Shown: positions 21,656 to 39,321 of the stretch, piece after piece
How positions within the stretch are numbered: position 1 is the stretch's first letter
Layout: every line of letters starts with the position of its first letter
Assembly: GCA_019359375.1 (NCBI GenBank)
Contig: JAHHHL010000001.1
Span: 124,001 to 188,000, forward strand
Reading direction: 5' to 3'
Source of the DNA: Lyngbya sp. HA4199-MV5
Lineage (GTDB): Bacteria > Cyanobacteriota > Cyanobacteriia > Leptolyngbyales > Leptolyngbyaceae
Length of the DNA stretch: 64,000 nt
Notes under the pieces: generated by a model
Told to the model about the DNA's origin: nothing
The model's database searches: none
Seen by the model: the letters and a program-made list of their open reading frames with translations, nothing else
Position numbers and translations under genes: made by a program

Positions 21656-21787
21656 CTAGGGCACGTCATCAATTAGCTCTAAAAGCTCGCGGTATCAGCA
21701 TCATCGCGCCCGTCCCAACACACCAGGCTAGGGGCTGGAACCCTTGCTTCCAATGATATGTAGTCGTAATTGATGACAGCCCCCAGC
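21656..21787. mobile_element. MITE-like element, family A, copy 1
   Basis: About 132 bases with inverted ends: CTAGGGCACGTCATCAATTA on the left and, in reverse complement, GCTGGGGGCTGTCATCAATT on the right. Matches 38745-38877 along its length and the left 93 bases match 27677-27769 next to a transposase remnant. It encodes nothing. It takes up about half of the gap 21588-21871. Confidence 0.8.
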
Positions 21788-21871
21788 AAGCTTTTACATC
21801 CCTTTCACTGGCTGGCTACATCCAGAATCACCTACTCTCTGTTGAAAGATTATTTTGGTCTTCTCTCAGTG

Positions 21872-27479: not shown

Positions 27480-27676
27480 TACAGAATGGAAGTGAAGCAT
27501 TCACCCTGAGTCGGAGCAATCTTCATGCCGTTTTCGGAACCTGCCGAACCGATCAGGGTATTCATATCTTACGACTAGAAAGACCAAGAACTTTTAAGGA
27601 AGCTGGTAAATCATCTAGCTCCACTACAGCACTGCAACTTGGTTAGAACGTTCAGTAGCTATGTCATTGGTGCAGG

Positions 27677-27950
27677 CTTAGGGCGTGTCATCAACTAGCT
27701 CCAAAACCTTGCAGTATCACCAGTGTCACGCCCGTCCCAACACATCAGGCTAGGGGCTGGAACCCTTGCCGATCATGTGCTCATACAGCAAACTCTCTCT
27801 CAAGGGAAGCAGGAGCAACTGTATCTGAGCCTCGATACCACCCTGGTGTGGCATTGTTTCTGCCTTGTTGGGGTTGGGGTGGTGTATCGGGGCAGAACCA
27901 CCCCTATCGCTTGGCGAATTGCCGTGCAATCGAGTAGCACTGTCAGGTGA
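27677..27950 (+). pseudogene. Truncated insertion sequence: family A left end plus start of an IS4-type transposase
   Basis: Bases 27677-27769 match the left 93 bases of the family A elements. Directly after, a frame to the stop at 27948 encodes a stretch with LYLSLDTTLVWHCFCLVG and VVYRGRTTPIAWRI. This resembles the region around the first catalytic Asp of IS4-family DDE transposases (ALDTT...R-G-R-A/T-x-P). The rest of the transposase and the right end are missing. No functional product is expected. Confidence 0.65.
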
Positions 27951-28290: not shown

Positions 28291-28328
28291 CGTCATCGAA
28301 TCATCCGACAGTTCATCGGTGCGCTGCT
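28291..28328 (-). repeat. NLR-tail repeat, copy 1
   Basis: On the minus strand it reads as RTDELSDDSMT in a frame with LLQKAIQKQ just before it, which resembles the C-terminal segment of the TPR protein at 30380-31714 (LLQKVMWARQAEQLSDHPVTQ). 37 of 38 bases are shared with copy 3 allowing for single changes. It lies inside the 3' end of the RelE-like toxin frame. Confidence 0.75.
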
Positions 28329-28678
28329 TCTGGATGGCTTTTTGGAGGAGTGATTTTTTGAGTAACTGACAACCTGATCGCTGTTGAACCAAGGAGCAAA
28401 GCTTTGTAGATGTTGCCTCTGAAGTCGATGTCGTAGACCTGTAAGGCATCCACTTCTAAGTCGATCGTGAAAACGACTCTAACTTTCCCTACACGCATCC
28501 TGAAGAATCCTTTCCATTCTCCTTTGAGGCTTTTGATGTCTAATTCGTTAAAGGGAATAATGCCCTCAGCCTCAAGCGATTGGAGGAGGACAGCAAGTCT
28601 TTCCTGGAGTTTCTCGGTTTCTTTAGGGGACAGTTTCTCTAGAAATTTGACAGAAGCTTTACTGAGGACGAGTTCCAT
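28313..28678 (-). CDS. RelE/ParE-superfamily toxin with read-through C-terminal extension
   Basis: 121 residues. MELVLSKASVKFLEKLSPKETEKLQER, NELDIKSLKGEWKGFFRMRVGKVRVVF and LQVYDIDFRGNIYK form a complete RelE/ParE-like toxin of about 92 residues; such toxins cut mRNA at the ribosome or target gyrase. Family members normally end near NIYK. Here the frame runs on for about 28 residues (ALLLGSTAIRLS... ending HPEAAHR) into the NLR-tail repeat, so the original stop appears lost. The start overlaps the antitoxin end by 20 bases. Activity with the extended tail is uncertain. Confidence 0.8.
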   Translation of the reverse strand: MELVLSKASVKFLEKLSPKETEKLQERLAVLLQSLEAEGIIPFNELDIKSLKGEWKGFFRMRVGKVRVVFTIDLEVDALQVYDIDFRGNIYKALLLGSTAIRLSVTQKITPPKSHPEAAHR

Positions 28679-29269: not shown

Positions 29270-29716
29270 TTAAGTTTCTGGTGCAGTGACGCTGAGAATA
29301 AAATCTACTGGGTTACAGACTTGCGTATTACCTTTGTAGCGTCTAACTAACCGATCGTCACAGGTGATGAAGTAGTCAGCAGCGAGAATTTCAGCACAGG
29401 CAATATCAATATGTAAGGCATCTAGTTGTCCAATCCGATCCTTGGCTTCAAGTTGCTGACCTCTGAATAACAATTCAGGTGTGAGTGTCTGATAAGTCCG
29501 GGCTATTTCTAGAATACCTAAGGCGATCGCTTGGCTGTCTGGGTAGGGATTGCGAGAAATTTCGTAGGCAAGGGCTTCTGATGCCACAAACTCAACTGCA
29601 CCCGTTTCAATCAAGAGCAAAATGGACTCCATTGCCTTGGCTTCAAGAGCGATTCGCATTTGAGAGCGATCGTCAAACAACCGATTCAGGGCGCTAGTGT
29701 CGAGATAGATTCTCAT
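29270..29716 (-). CDS. PIN-domain ribonuclease (VapC-like toxin)
   Basis: 148 residues. MRIYLDTSALNRLFDD carries the first catalytic Asp (Asp6). Acidic residues in ASEALAYEISRNP, LDALHIDIACAE and YFITCDDRLVRRY match the other PIN active-site positions. VapC-like enzymes cleave RNA, often initiator tRNA or rRNA loops. Followed without a gap by a putative antitoxin. It lies between NLR-tail repeats copy 2 and copy 3. Confidence 0.85.
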   Translation of the reverse strand: MRIYLDTSALNRLFDDRSQMRIALEAKAMESILLLIETGAVEFVASEALAYEISRNPYPDSQAIALGILEIARTYQTLTPELLFRGQQLEAKDRIGQLDALHIDIACAEILAADYFITCDDRLVRRYKGNTQVCNPVDFILSVTAPET

Positions 29717-29842: not shown

Positions 29843-30121
29843 TTACTGTGTAGCCACTCTGGAATAGGTTGGAATCGGAGTCTCAGAAACAATGGCGTAC
29901 AGCACGTCGGGGTCGAGGTCAGCGCCGTTTTGCCAGATTAGTGTGCCTAGTTCTGGGTGAATCTGAACTTGGGCAAAGGTTGCCGGATCTTGTAGAGGGG
30001 CAAAGATACCGGAAAATGGAATCAACTGACTAATATCCACAACTCCTTCAATGCCATCCTCAAAGCGTAGAAAGAGTTGATAACCTTCTAATCGTTTGAC
30101 TGCCACAATGTCTTTGAGCAT
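29843..30121 (-). CDS. DUF2442 family protein
   Basis: 92 residues. VVAVKRLEGYQLFLRFEDGIEGVVDISQL- and WQNGADLDPDVLY-type segments are the DUF2442 signature. It is 5 bases below the DUF4160 gene on the same strand. DUF4160 and DUF2442 genes commonly travel together and are suspected toxin-antitoxin-like pairs; the activity is not established. Confidence 0.9.
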   Translation of the reverse strand: MLKDIVAVKRLEGYQLFLRFEDGIEGVVDISQLIPFSGIFAPLQDPATFAQVQIHPELGTLIWQNGADLDPDVLYAIVSETPIPTYSRVATQ

Positions 30122-30126
30122 AAACC

Positions 30127-30387
30127 TTACTCCAGGGGTTGAACGGATTCTAGCGGCTCCTGCTGTCTGGCTAATTCCCAGTTTTGCAACAGTTCAGCCT
30201 GATGGGCAGATGCCCACTCGATGACGAGTCCCAGAACTCTAGGGGAAAGTTTTCCTTCCAGAATGGAGAGGGACTGAATTTCAATGATGGCTTTTTGTTG
30301 ACCGTAACGCACATGAAAATGGGGTGGTGGATGATCGTTGTAGTACATGGCGATGATGATGCCAAAGAAGCGACTGATTTCAGGCAT
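30127..30387 (-). CDS. DUF4160 family protein
   Basis: 86 residues. The motif MYYNDHPPPHFHVRYGQQKAIIEI is the hallmark of DUF4160. The start overlaps the TPR gene stop by 8 bases, so it is translationally coupled to the NLR locus. The DUF2442 partner follows 5 bases later. HPPPHFH histidines may bind metal, but the role is unknown. Confidence 0.9.
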   Translation of the reverse strand: MPEISRFFGIIIAMYYNDHPPPHFHVRYGQQKAIIEIQSLSILEGKLSPRVLGLVIEWASAHQAELLQNWELARQQEPLESVQPLE

Positions 30388-31714
30388 TAGTATCCCCTGC
30401 CTGTATCCGCCGCAGCAACTTCTGCGTCACTGGATGGTCGGAGAGTTGCTCGGCTTGTCTTGCCCACATCACCTTCTGCAAAAGAAGTCGAAAGCTTTGC
30501 TGTACAGTTTGAGTATGGCGATGGTCATTGTCTAAGCGATTCAACAAGATTTCTAATGCCTGAACATACAGCGGTTCTGCCTCAACGTAGCGTCCTTGTA
30601 ATTGATAAAGGTTTGCCAAACTATTGATGGTGATTGCTACAGCCGGATGCGTTTCTCCTAACCATCGCTCGTGAATAGGTAGAGAAAACAGTAAGAGTGG
30701 CTCTGCTTTGCTGTATTGTTCTTGGGAATAGTAAAGTGTTGCCAGGTTATGTAAAATCTCTGCTACTTCAAAACTTTTCTCCCCGTATAAACGTTCGCTG
30801 ATGTTCAGCGCTCGATTGTAAAGCGATTCAGCTTCATCAGAGCGTCCTTGCAATTGATAAAGTCCTGCTAGATTGTTTAGGCTAGTTGCTACGAAAGGAT
30901 CGTCAGCTTCTAGTTGCTGCTCGCTTATGGCAAGCGCCTGTAAGTAAAGTGTCTCAGCTTCGGGGTATCGTTTTTGTGAAGAGCGAAGTCCTGCTAAATC
31001 GTTCAGGCTTGCTGCTACATCGGGAGCGTCTGCTCCTAGTTTTCTCTCTCGAATGGCAAGCGCTCTTAAACAGAGCGGTTCTGCTTCGGGGTAGCGTCCC
31101 TGCACTCGAAGGAGCTTTGCTAAAGTGCCCAGGTTTAGTACCACATCAAGATGGTCTTGTCCCAACTGCTGTTCCCGAATTGAGAGCGATCGTAGGTAGA
31201 GCGGTTCTGCTTCCACATAGCGTCCTTGATCGTGGTAGAGACTTGCTAGCCAAAATAGACAGGTTGCTGCCTCCAGTGCTTGCTCTGGTCTGGTTAACCG
31301 TTCCATCGCCACCTGCAAGTGGGCAATCGCCACCGTCGATTCCTTGATCAGCGATCGCTCCGGCTTCTCCTGCACTCTTTTTGCCTCTGCAATCACCACC
31401 TCATAAAACCGCTGCTGCAATGCTGAGTCATTTGCCCGTTGCGATCGCTTTGCAGCAAAAAATTCTCGCAGCAGTTGATGTAGTTGGTACATCCCCTGAT
31501 CGACACGCTTGAGTAGATTTGCGCCTAAGAGGGCGCGATCGCGGATCTCTTCCAACTCTTCTGCATCCACTTCTGGCAAACACTGCTCCACCAGCGTCCA
31601 GGGGATTTCCACCAGGGCAAACAGGCTTAAGACGGCGGCGACTTGCTGCGCGGACTCGTCCAATGCCTGCCAGCTCAACTCAAACGCGGCGGCGACTCCC
31701 AACGATGCTGTCAT
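30380..31714 (-). CDS. NLR C-terminal half: winged-helix and TPR sensor, out of frame with the TIR-NB-ARC half
   Basis: 444 residues if it starts at the ATG at 31712-31714. It opens with LGVAAAFELSWQALDESAQQVAAVLSLFA and a winged-helix-like region with LLRRVD-type YQLHQLLREFF, as found after the NB-ARC ATPase in STAND proteins. Eight or so kinesin-light-chain TPRs follow (EAEPLYLRSLSIREQQLG, LAxLYxxQGRYxEAE). They likely form the ligand sensor. The frame is open up to 31855 but belongs to the preceding gene through an A5 run at 31727-31731. ATGA overlaps the upstream stop, so reinitiation is also possible. The C-terminal peptide AEQLSDHPVTQKLL is the source of the NLR-tail repeats. Confidence 0.85.
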   Translation of the reverse strand: MTASLGVAAAFELSWQALDESAQQVAAVLSLFALVEIPWTLVEQCLPEVDAEELEEIRDRALLGANLLKRVDQGMYQLHQLLREFFAAKRSQRANDSALQQRFYEVVIAEAKRVQEKPERSLIKESTVAIAHLQVAMERLTRPEQALEAATCLFWLASLYHDQGRYVEAEPLYLRSLSIREQQLGQDHLDVVLNLGTLAKLLRVQGRYPEAEPLCLRALAIRERKLGADAPDVAASLNDLAGLRSSQKRYPEAETLYLQALAISEQQLEADDPFVATSLNNLAGLYQLQGRSDEAESLYNRALNISERLYGEKSFEVAEILHNLATLYYSQEQYSKAEPLLLFSLPIHERWLGETHPAVAITINSLANLYQLQGRYVEAEPLYVQALEILLNRLDNDHRHTQTVQQSFRLLLQKVMWARQAEQLSDHPVTQKLLRRIQAGDTNA

Positions 31715-32913
31715 ACCGGGTTCGGCTTTTTGAAGGCGATCGCGTCCAGGCGTTTGTCCTGCAACCGTTGCCACAGGGTTTCCAGCGATGTATCGGGTTT
31801 GCGTGCCAGATACCGCCCAACTAGCTCGATTCCCAGCGGCAGGTAGCCCAACCATTCGCAGAGTTGTTTTGCTCGCGCTAAGGCGTGATCTACCCGATCG
31901 TCTTTCACCAGCGATCGCAATAATTCCAGCGCCTTTGCCTCCGACAACACATCTAGTTGCAAATCCTGCACGGGTGAGCCGAAGTGCGATCGCGTGGTTA
32001 GCAATACCTTAAAGCGCGAGTCTTGCGGCGGCAGGAAGGGGGCAATATCGTCGTAGTGCTGCACGTCATCAAAGATGAGGAGTGCGGCTCCTTCACGCCA
32101 GCGTCTCCAGCACCAGCGCACCTTTTCGACGAGTTCCAGGTCGTCTGGTGGGATTAATTCCAGGAGCGATCGCACAAAGCTAATAATTTGTGCCCCAACA
32201 TCTTCTCGTGCCCGTATCCAGCAGAGTCCAGCGGGATAAGAACCCTCACGGCACTGTTGGCGGGCATATTGCAACGCGAGTTCGGTCTTGCCAATGCCAC
32301 CCATCCCGGAAAGGGCAGAAATGGCGACGGTGGAACCTTGCTGCAACTGGTGATGGATCTGTTCGAGTTCCGCGTCTCGTCCGACAAAGGTATTGCTGCC
32401 GTAGGGAAGGTTCTGGAGGATGTTGGGCGGGTAGATGGGTTTGGCGCGATCGGTCATTGATGCTGTTTGTCCGGGGAAGCTTGGCTTTTGCTGAGGCTTG
32501 GTGCGTCCGGTTTGTACGGCTTGCAGCACTAATTCCTGCGCGGCTGCTTCTTCAACGCTAACCAGATCGACGTAGACGATCGGTGCCCACATTCCGGTTA
32601 AGGTACACTCGCCGACGCGAATGGGAATGAGTAAATGCTTCTCTCCGGTTGGGTCTTGGGCAAAGGCGGCTGCCCATTCGGGTTGGGTAAATTGCGAACT
32701 CAGATAGTTTTCAGATAGGACGGCGATCGTGCGGTCTGCCTGGGACGCGGCGCGTTGCATATCCAGCACGAAGTTTCCACCGGGACGGAAATCCCATGCC
32801 TGAATGATGACGGTGTATTCTGCGGCTTCGAGTGTCCAGGCGATCCATTCTGCCCAGGTTTTATCGTGGCGATTGTAGCTGATGAAAAAATCGTTTGTTG
32901 CTTCAGCTTGCAT
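31711..32913 (-). CDS. NLR N-terminal half: TIR and NB-ARC domains (frame break at 3' end)
   Basis: 400 residues. The TIR domain (about 7-118) begins DFFISYNRHDKTWAEWIAW and has the candidate catalytic Glu79 in the FTQPEW motif; TIR domains cleave NAD+ or make cyclic ADP-ribose signals. The NB-ARC ATPase follows: P-loop GMGGIGKT (203-210), Walker B LLIFDDV (278-284), sensor VLLTTRS (303-309) and GYLPL (356-360). This is the layout of bacterial and plant NLR immune receptors. The protein would continue into the TPR frame if one base were added in the A5 run (31727-31731). As read, it stops after KKPNPV at a TGA that overlaps ATG of the next frame. Confidence 0.88.
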   Translation of the reverse strand: MQAEATNDFFISYNRHDKTWAEWIAWTLEAAEYTVIIQAWDFRPGGNFVLDMQRAASQADRTIAVLSENYLSSQFTQPEWAAAFAQDPTGEKHLLIPIRVGECTLTGMWAPIVYVDLVSVEEAAAQELVLQAVQTGRTKPQQKPSFPGQTASMTDRAKPIYPPNILQNLPYGSNTFVGRDAELEQIHHQLQQGSTVAISALSGMGGIGKTELALQYARQQCREGSYPAGLCWIRAREDVGAQIISFVRSLLELIPPDDLELVEKVRWCWRRWREGAALLIFDDVQHYDDIAPFLPPQDSRFKVLLTTRSHFGSPVQDLQLDVLSEAKALELLRSLVKDDRVDHALARAKQLCEWLGYLPLGIELVGRYLARKPDTSLETLWQRLQDKRLDAIAFKKPNPV

Positions 32914-38744: not shown

Positions 38745-38877
38745 CTTAGGGCGTGTCATCAATTAGCTCCGAAACCTTGTGATATCAGCACTGTCGCGCC
38801 CGTCCCAACACACAAGGCTAGGGGCTGGAAACCTTCCTGCAAGCAATGTGTAGTCGTCATTGATGACAGCCCCTAGC
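38745..38877. mobile_element. MITE-like element, family A, copy 2 (most complete)
   Basis: 133 bases. Left end CTTAGGGCGTGTCATCAATT and right end, reversed, GCTAGGGGCTGTCATCAATG are inverted repeats. The inside matches 21656-21787, including GTCCCAACACA and AGGCTAGGGGCTGGAA blocks. It has no coding capacity. Confidence 0.85.
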
Positions 38878-39321
38878 ATGCGAGCGAAACCCTCTGCCTC
38901 ACCGAAAACATACCTACCGCACGCTAAGCCCTTACGATTGGTTTTGCCGATATCATTTAATTCACGATCTTAAGCGCAGAGTGGCGGAGCCATCCTAGCA
39001 GGAATCTAACAACCACAACAAAACTTGCTGCACAGTCTTCTTTCCCTGATTGACTGACAGAACTCTCAAAACCCCTATTCTTGCGTAGCGATCGTCTTGC
39101 ATTGCGGTTGCATTGCATCACATTATTGCTGGCTCGAGAAACCATGATGGAGCAAGGTCAAACAACCTGACTCCATCATTAGAGGGTGTCTGAGGAGCAT
39201 GATCAGCAGCGGATGAAACGGATAGCACACAGCTTTCAGCCAAAATCGATCAGCAGCGATCTCTGGCTTTCGATCCGTTGCCCACTGCTTTGACGCTTTT
39301 CAGAACATCCTCTGAGATACA
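38878..39321. other. Intergenic region with nothing further recognised
   Basis: About 440 bases. Only the GATCAGCAGCGGATGAAACGG sequence shared with 34739-34776 stands out; I see no gene. Confidence 0.4.

What the first reader, a model, noticed from the sequence alone, without database searches (positions are those of the whole stretch)
30380..32913. Frame-split TIR-NB-ARC-TPR (NLR-like) locus
Seen: the TIR/NB-ARC frame stops at 31711, while the natural continuation (KKAEPGMTASLG...) lies in the -1 frame joined at a run of five A (31727-31731, minus strand). A stop-start overlap (ATGA) at 31711-31714 would also allow reinitiation. Known: bacterial NLR-like STAND proteins sense invaders and trigger TIR NADase activity or other effectors. 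Inference: either one inactivating base change, a programmed frameshift or phase switch at the A run, or a true two-subunit receptor in which sensor and effector halves are coupled.
Basis: partly seen in the sequence, partly recalled or inferred. Interest (0 to 1): 0.82.

Follow-up and report, generated by a model that had tools for sequence, protein, structure and literature searches.

The report
Ordinary immune-like gene with frameshift
A cyanobacterial gene for an immune-receptor-like protein (TIR–NB-ARC–TPR) is cut in two by a single missing base; its relatives are unbroken, so this is most likely a recent chance mutation or a sequencing error rather than a programmed switch or a two-part receptor.

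Summary
A TIR/NB-ARC frame (32913-31711, minus strand) ends at a TGA. The winged-helix and TPR part continues in the -1 frame, and the join is at A5 (31727-31731). The interpretation mostly fails. The four closest relatives (61-83% identical) carry one continuous 760-974 aa frame, and at the join the nearest ones read TTC/TTT AAG CAA GCN: one base more and no A run. Of about 155 matches listed from 390 genomes of the class, only the window and one groundwater MAG, with an unrelated 46-bp duplication, break there. The ATGA stop-start is incidental: it is spelled by a conserved Met-Thr. The site is not a slippery heptamer, and no stimulatory RNA structure was found. Both halves are under purifying selection and keep 84 of 85 near-invariant residues, so the change is recent, or a sequencing or assembly error; reads are needed to tell which. 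The break falls in the linker between HD1 and the winged helix of an Apaf-1/plant-NLR-like core, so the predicted 400-aa product has the TIR effector and ATPase but lacks the regulatory and sensor parts. Ordinary finding: a broken or misread member of a known family.

The parts
31711..32913 (-). first reading frame, 400 aa: TIR plus NB-ARC, ends at TGA 31711-31713
   Evidence: 83% identical to an intact relative
32530..32889 (-). TIR_2 domain (aa 9-128 of the first frame)
   Evidence: Pfam PF13676, E 5e-34
31753..32376 (-). NB-ARC domain (aa 180-387), with P-loop GMGGIGKTE, LLTTR and GYLPLG motifs
   Evidence: Pfam PF00931, E 1e-17; 56 of 57 near-invariant columns kept
31727..31731 (-). run of five A at the frame join; one base fewer than in relatives
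   Evidence: DNA alignment to four same-genus relatives; frame switch placed at 31734 by codon usage
31711..31714 (-). ATGA stop-start overlap; the ATG is a conserved internal Met of the family (EPG-M-T-ASLG)
   Evidence: Met-Thr at least 90% conserved in 62 intact relatives
30380..31726 (-). continuation in the -1 frame: winged helix and TPR repeats, up to its own stop
31421..31702 (-). winged-helix region with MHD-like motif YQLHQLLREFF (second frame; approximate limits)
   Evidence: 28 of 28 near-invariant columns kept; model and matches to Apaf-1 and plant NLRs
30467..31273 (-). TPR repeats (second frame; approximate limits)
   Evidence: Pfam TPR_12, TPR_10
30127..30387 (-). next gene, DUF4160/DhiT-like, overlapping the TPR end by 8 bases; neighbour, not part of the receptor

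Best explanation
This is one ordinary gene for a cyanobacterial TIR-NB-ARC-TPR (STAND, NLR-like) protein that carries a single one-base deletion relative to its relatives. Shown: the frame is broken at the linker between HD1 and the winged helix, the relatives are whole, and nothing else in the gene has decayed. Inferred: the cell makes mainly a 400-aa TIR-NB-ARC fragment with a short out-of-frame tail. That fragment lacks the winged helix with its MHD-like motif, which in this class helps hold the nucleotide and the off state, and lacks the TPR sensor, so the receptor is non-functional or unregulated. The intact protein would work like other STAND receptors: TPR senses a trigger, NB-ARC exchanges ADP for ATP and oligomerises, and clustered TIR domains act, probably on NAD+. 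Whether the base was lost in the living strain (my estimate: about two in three) or in sequencing or assembly (about one in three) cannot be told from this assembly.
For: Same-genus relatives with 83, 75, 61 and 75% identity have single frames of 937, 974, 760 and 907 aa. At the join they read AAG CAA GCN or close to it; the window is one base short. In 41 family matches only the window is split; among roughly 155 listed matches in 390 genomes of the class only the window and one MAG break there, the latter by a 46-bp tandem duplication. Window-specific changes are mostly synonymous in both halves (20 syn / 5 nonsyn codons up, 12 / 4 down). Near-invariant residues are kept 56/57 and 28/28. No intact copy lies elsewhere in the genome. 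Relatives elsewhere in the class are broken at other places by other events, so loss by chance indels is not rare in this family. Antonov et al. 2013 (PMC3711429) ascribe such single, unclustered frame transitions mainly to sequencing errors or recent indels.
Against: No other strain of the same species and no reads were available, so reality of the deletion is not shown. Both halves remain under the same purifying selection, which would also be expected if both products were still made. A -1 slip on AAA AAG would restore a protein of the normal length (FKK in place of FKQ), so a low level of full-length protein is possible.
Confidence: 0.9

Rival explanations
1. Programmed or useful -1 ribosomal frameshifting at C_AAA_AAG makes a fraction of full-length receptor alongside the short TIR-NB-ARC form.
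For: The A_AAG tetramer lies in frame at the join and a -1 slip there gives a protein of exactly the relatives' length. A_AA.G is the most shift-prone tetramer in E. coli when a pseudoknot follows; the range for shifting tetramers then is 0.26-5.6% (PMC4066793).
Against: It is not an X_XXZ_ZZN heptamer. Without a stimulator the tetramers are near background (0.147 versus 0.112% on average). The downstream RNA folds no better than shuffles (z +0.2 to +1.0). The site and the frame change are absent in relatives.
Confidence: 0.03
2. A coupled two-subunit receptor: ribosomes terminate at TGA and restart at the overlapping ATG, and TIR-NB-ARC and winged-helix-TPR chains reassemble.
For: ATGA overlap at 31711-31714; the break is in a low-confidence linker between HD1 and the winged helix; both halves are intact and constrained; a second relative (L067) is independently broken within about 20 codons with an ATG shortly after the stop.
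Against: The ATG is a conserved internal Met followed by Thr (ATG ACN always spells ATGA). A simulated one-base deletion at each codon of an intact relative ends within 4 nt of an in-frame ATG/GTG in 33% of cases. No Shine-Dalgarno-like stretch precedes it. All close relatives are single chains.
Confidence: 0.05
3. Phase-variable switch: the A run gains and loses a base to turn the receptor on and off.
For: A homopolymer lies at the join.
Against: Only five A, one of 145 such runs in 64 kb; relatives have no conserved run there.
Confidence: 0.02

Closest known systems
Cyanobacterial TIR-NB-ARC-TPR genes in Stenomitos, Tildeniella and Phormidesmis (e.g. JAHHIE010000032, JAHHIG010000012, NZ_LXYR01000012)
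   Same: TIR, NB-ARC and winged helix aligned end to end, 67-83% identity over the first frame; TPR repeats at the C-terminus
   Different: theirs is one continuous frame; in the window it is one base short at the HD1/winged-helix linker
Apaf-1 and plant NB-ARC receptors (NRC4, NRC2, Roq1, ZAR1)
   Same: NB-ARC plus winged-helix fold: model of the intact relative aligns to Apaf-1 at Z 28.7, 374 residues, rmsd 3.8; profile hit to NRC4 over the same span, E 7e-16
   Different: TPR instead of WD40 or LRR; bacterial; function untested
STAND-TPR protein PH0952 (6mfv) and AfsR (8k60)
   Same: STAND ATPase with TPR-type sensor; PH0952 at Z 22.3; AfsR profile E 4e-30
   Different: no TIR domain reported in the matches; AfsR is a transcriptional regulator
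FxSxx-COOH system TPR protein (NF040586)
   Same: best NCBIfam match of both halves
   Different: scores 105 and 88 bits against a cut-off of 300

Membership tests
bacterial TIR-STAND (NB-ARC, NLR-like) receptor | TIR domain at the N-terminus | tested here: met
   PF13676, 117.8 bits against cut-off 28
bacterial TIR-STAND (NB-ARC, NLR-like) receptor | NB-ARC ATPase with P-loop | tested here: met
   PF00931, 64.3 bits against cut-off 23.5; GMGGIGKTE invariant in 62 relatives and present here
bacterial TIR-STAND (NB-ARC, NLR-like) receptor | winged helix with MHD-like motif after the ATPase | tested here: met
   present, but in the second frame; 28/28 near-invariant residues; matches NRC4 and Apaf-1
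bacterial TIR-STAND (NB-ARC, NLR-like) receptor | C-terminal repeat sensor (TPR) | tested here: met
   TPR_12, TPR_10 in the second frame
bacterial TIR-STAND (NB-ARC, NLR-like) receptor | all parts in one polypeptide | tested here: not met
   frame broken at 31727-31731; relatives whole. By descent it is a family member; as assembled it is a broken one
bacterial TIR-STAND (NB-ARC, NLR-like) receptor | NADase activity and defence function | not testable with these tools
   needs biochemistry and phage challenge
programmed -1 frameshift gene | X_XXZ_ZZN slippery heptamer | tested here: not met
   C_AAA_AAG; only an A_AAG tetramer in frame
programmed -1 frameshift gene | downstream stimulatory structure | tested here: inconclusive
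   z +0.21 to +1.01 for three stretches, so no unusual hairpin; pseudoknots not modelled
programmed -1 frameshift gene | frame change conserved in relatives | tested here: not met
phase-variable gene | long or conserved simple repeat at the switch point | tested here: not met
   A5; relatives' longest A run at the site is 1-5 and differs between them
translationally coupled split gene pair | stop-start overlap with a split conserved in relatives | tested here: not met
   overlap present, split not conserved
FxSxx-COOH system TPR protein NF040586 | score above the curated cut-off of 300 bits | tested here: not met
   104.9 and 87.9 bits for the two halves

The most novel reading that the evidence does not exclude
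The HD1/winged-helix linker of these receptors tolerates being split, and restart at the conserved Met lets the two chains reassemble into a working two-part NLR; the window and L067 would be independent cases.
Probability: 0.04. Interest if true: 0.5.

Novelty: new member of a known kind. Interest (0 to 1): 0.12.

Why it matters
Little by itself. It is a clean example of how a frame break that looks programmed (A run, -1 continuation, ATGA overlap) is explained by relatives as a single chance indel. If the split forms did work, NLR-like receptors could be rebuilt from two chains, which would help dissect sensor and effector; the evidence does not favour this.

Tried and rejected
Programmed frameshift: no heptamer, no unusual hairpin, no conservation. 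Phase variation: no repeat in relatives. Old pseudogene: no further lesions, constraint intact. General poor assembly: no other intragenic frame switch in the window by codon usage. Intact second copy in the genome that could act with the fragment: none; only a separate TIR match (61% identical, 252-aa open frame) and a 28% NB-ARC match. Synteny with relatives: the intact relatives lie in other neighbourhoods, so flanks could not be used. Plasmid and viral collections: no close relatives. First structure prediction with 10 rows gave pLDDT 62 and was not used for fold comparison. Papers on cyanobacterial TIR-NB-ARC-TPR proteins: nothing specific found in the open-access library.

Full report
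Observation. On the minus strand a 400-codon frame runs from ATG 32913 to TGA 31711-31713 and contains a TIR_2 domain and an NB-ARC domain. The sequence that should follow, winged helix and TPR repeats, lies in the -1 frame and is open to 30380. The two frames meet at TTC AAA AAG CCG, with five A at 31727-31731.

Relatives. The window is from a 6.9-Mb cyanobacterial genome whose same-genus relatives include records labelled Stenomitos and Tildeniella. The four best full or near-full matches there have one continuous frame of 937, 974, 760 and 907 aa. At the join the closest relatives read TTC or TTT, AAG CAA GCN (AFKQAEPGM), where the window has TTC AAA AAG CC. The window is one base short, and the A run exists only in the window. 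The residue after FK varies in the family (Q, K, D, E), so one cannot say whether the C itself was lost or a C-to-A change was followed by loss of an A.

How unusual is the split. In 42 genomes of the family, 41 matches to the join region were found, and among the close ones only the window's is cut off at the join. In 390 genomes of the class about 155 matches were listed; two begin at the join, the window and G113:C47, which by its coordinates is locus L067. In L067 the cause is a 46-bp tandem duplication of the EPGMTASLGVAAAFE stretch, not the same event. Other relatives are broken elsewhere: L090 between winged helix and TPR, L096 inside the TPR, L118 inside NB-ARC, and L076, L097 and L112 by stops. 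So indels and stops arise now and then in this family, at different places, as expected for dispensable genes and draft assemblies.

The stop-start overlap. The ATG of the ATGA is the Met of a Met-Thr pair that is at least 90% conserved in 62 intact relatives. ATG followed by any Thr codon spells ATGA, so a -1 shift not stopped earlier will end there. In an intact relative, one-base deletions tried at every codon end within 4 nt of an in-frame ATG or GTG in 33% of cases. The overlap is no evidence of design. No Shine-Dalgarno-like stretch precedes the ATG.

Frameshifting. The site is C_AAA_AAG, so only the A_AAG tetramer is in place. In E. coli such tetramers without a stimulator are near background (0.147 versus 0.112% on average), and shifting tetramers, A_AA.G foremost, reach 0.26-5.6% only with a pseudoknot (PMC4066793). 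Three downstream stretches fold no better than shuffles (z +0.9, +1.0, +0.2); pseudoknots were not modelled. A trace of full-length protein by leaky slippage is possible, a programme is unlikely.

Age of the lesion. Changes unique to the window relative to three relatives are mostly synonymous in both halves: 20 synonymous and 5 nonsynonymous codons upstream, 12 and 4 downstream over the 184 conserved codons. The window keeps 56 of 57 near-invariant residues of the NB-ARC part and 28 of 28 of the winged-helix part. No second lesion was found. The base was lost very recently, or in sequencing or assembly. Antonov et al. 2013 treat such singletons as sequencing errors or recent indels (PMC3711429). 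The assembly alone cannot decide.

What the protein is. A model of the intact relative's NB-ARC and winged helix (62 sequences, pLDDT 87) aligns to Apaf-1 at Z 28.7 over 374 residues (rmsd 3.8), to the plant NRC1 NB-ARC at Z 24.3, and to the STAND-TPR protein PH0952 at Z 22.3. A sequence profile hits AfsR (E 4e-30) and NRC4 (E 7e-16) across both NB-ARC and winged helix. In the model the join (about residue 234-236) sits at the end of the helix that closes HD1, next to the loop before the winged helix, with low local confidence (pLDDT 65). The break therefore separates TIR, ATPase and HD1 from the winged helix, MHD-like motif and TPR sensor. From established knowledge of STAND receptors the fragment should not sense or be held off normally; whether it is inert, harmful or degraded is not known. 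No other intact copy exists in the genome.

Verdict. A correct and careful observation; the thing is an ordinary family member with a one-base break, real or technical.

Noticed in passing
L067:4696-4790: A groundwater MAG relative (JACQYI010000022) is broken at nearly the same place by a 46-bp tandem duplication, leaving an ATG 7 nt after the stop.
   Followed up: partly
L090:5060-5080: In Adonisia turfae CCMR0081 the NB-ARC and TPR parts lie in two overlapping frames with a GGAAGAG stretch before the second ATG; possibly a genuine split gene pair.
   Followed up: partly
29843-30387: DUF4160 and DUF2442 genes, resembling the DhiT/DhiA toxin-antitoxin pair (below NCBIfam cut-offs), directly follow and overlap the TPR end by 8 bases; a PIN-domain gene (29270-29716) and another small gene (28313-28678) follow.
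   Followed up: partly
21657-21788, 27674-27769, 38745-38879: A repeat of about 130 bp, in two of the three copies with imperfect inverted ends of 17-20 nt, is found at least 40 times in the genome at 91-95% identity (347 first-look candidates, only 40 scored); it looks like a MITE. No Rfam match in the window.
   Followed up: partly
L118:2392-5907: Acaryochloris plasmid pMB06 carries a TIR gene followed by an NB-ARC/TPR gene broken into two overlapping annotated genes, apparently another disrupted relative.
   Followed up: no
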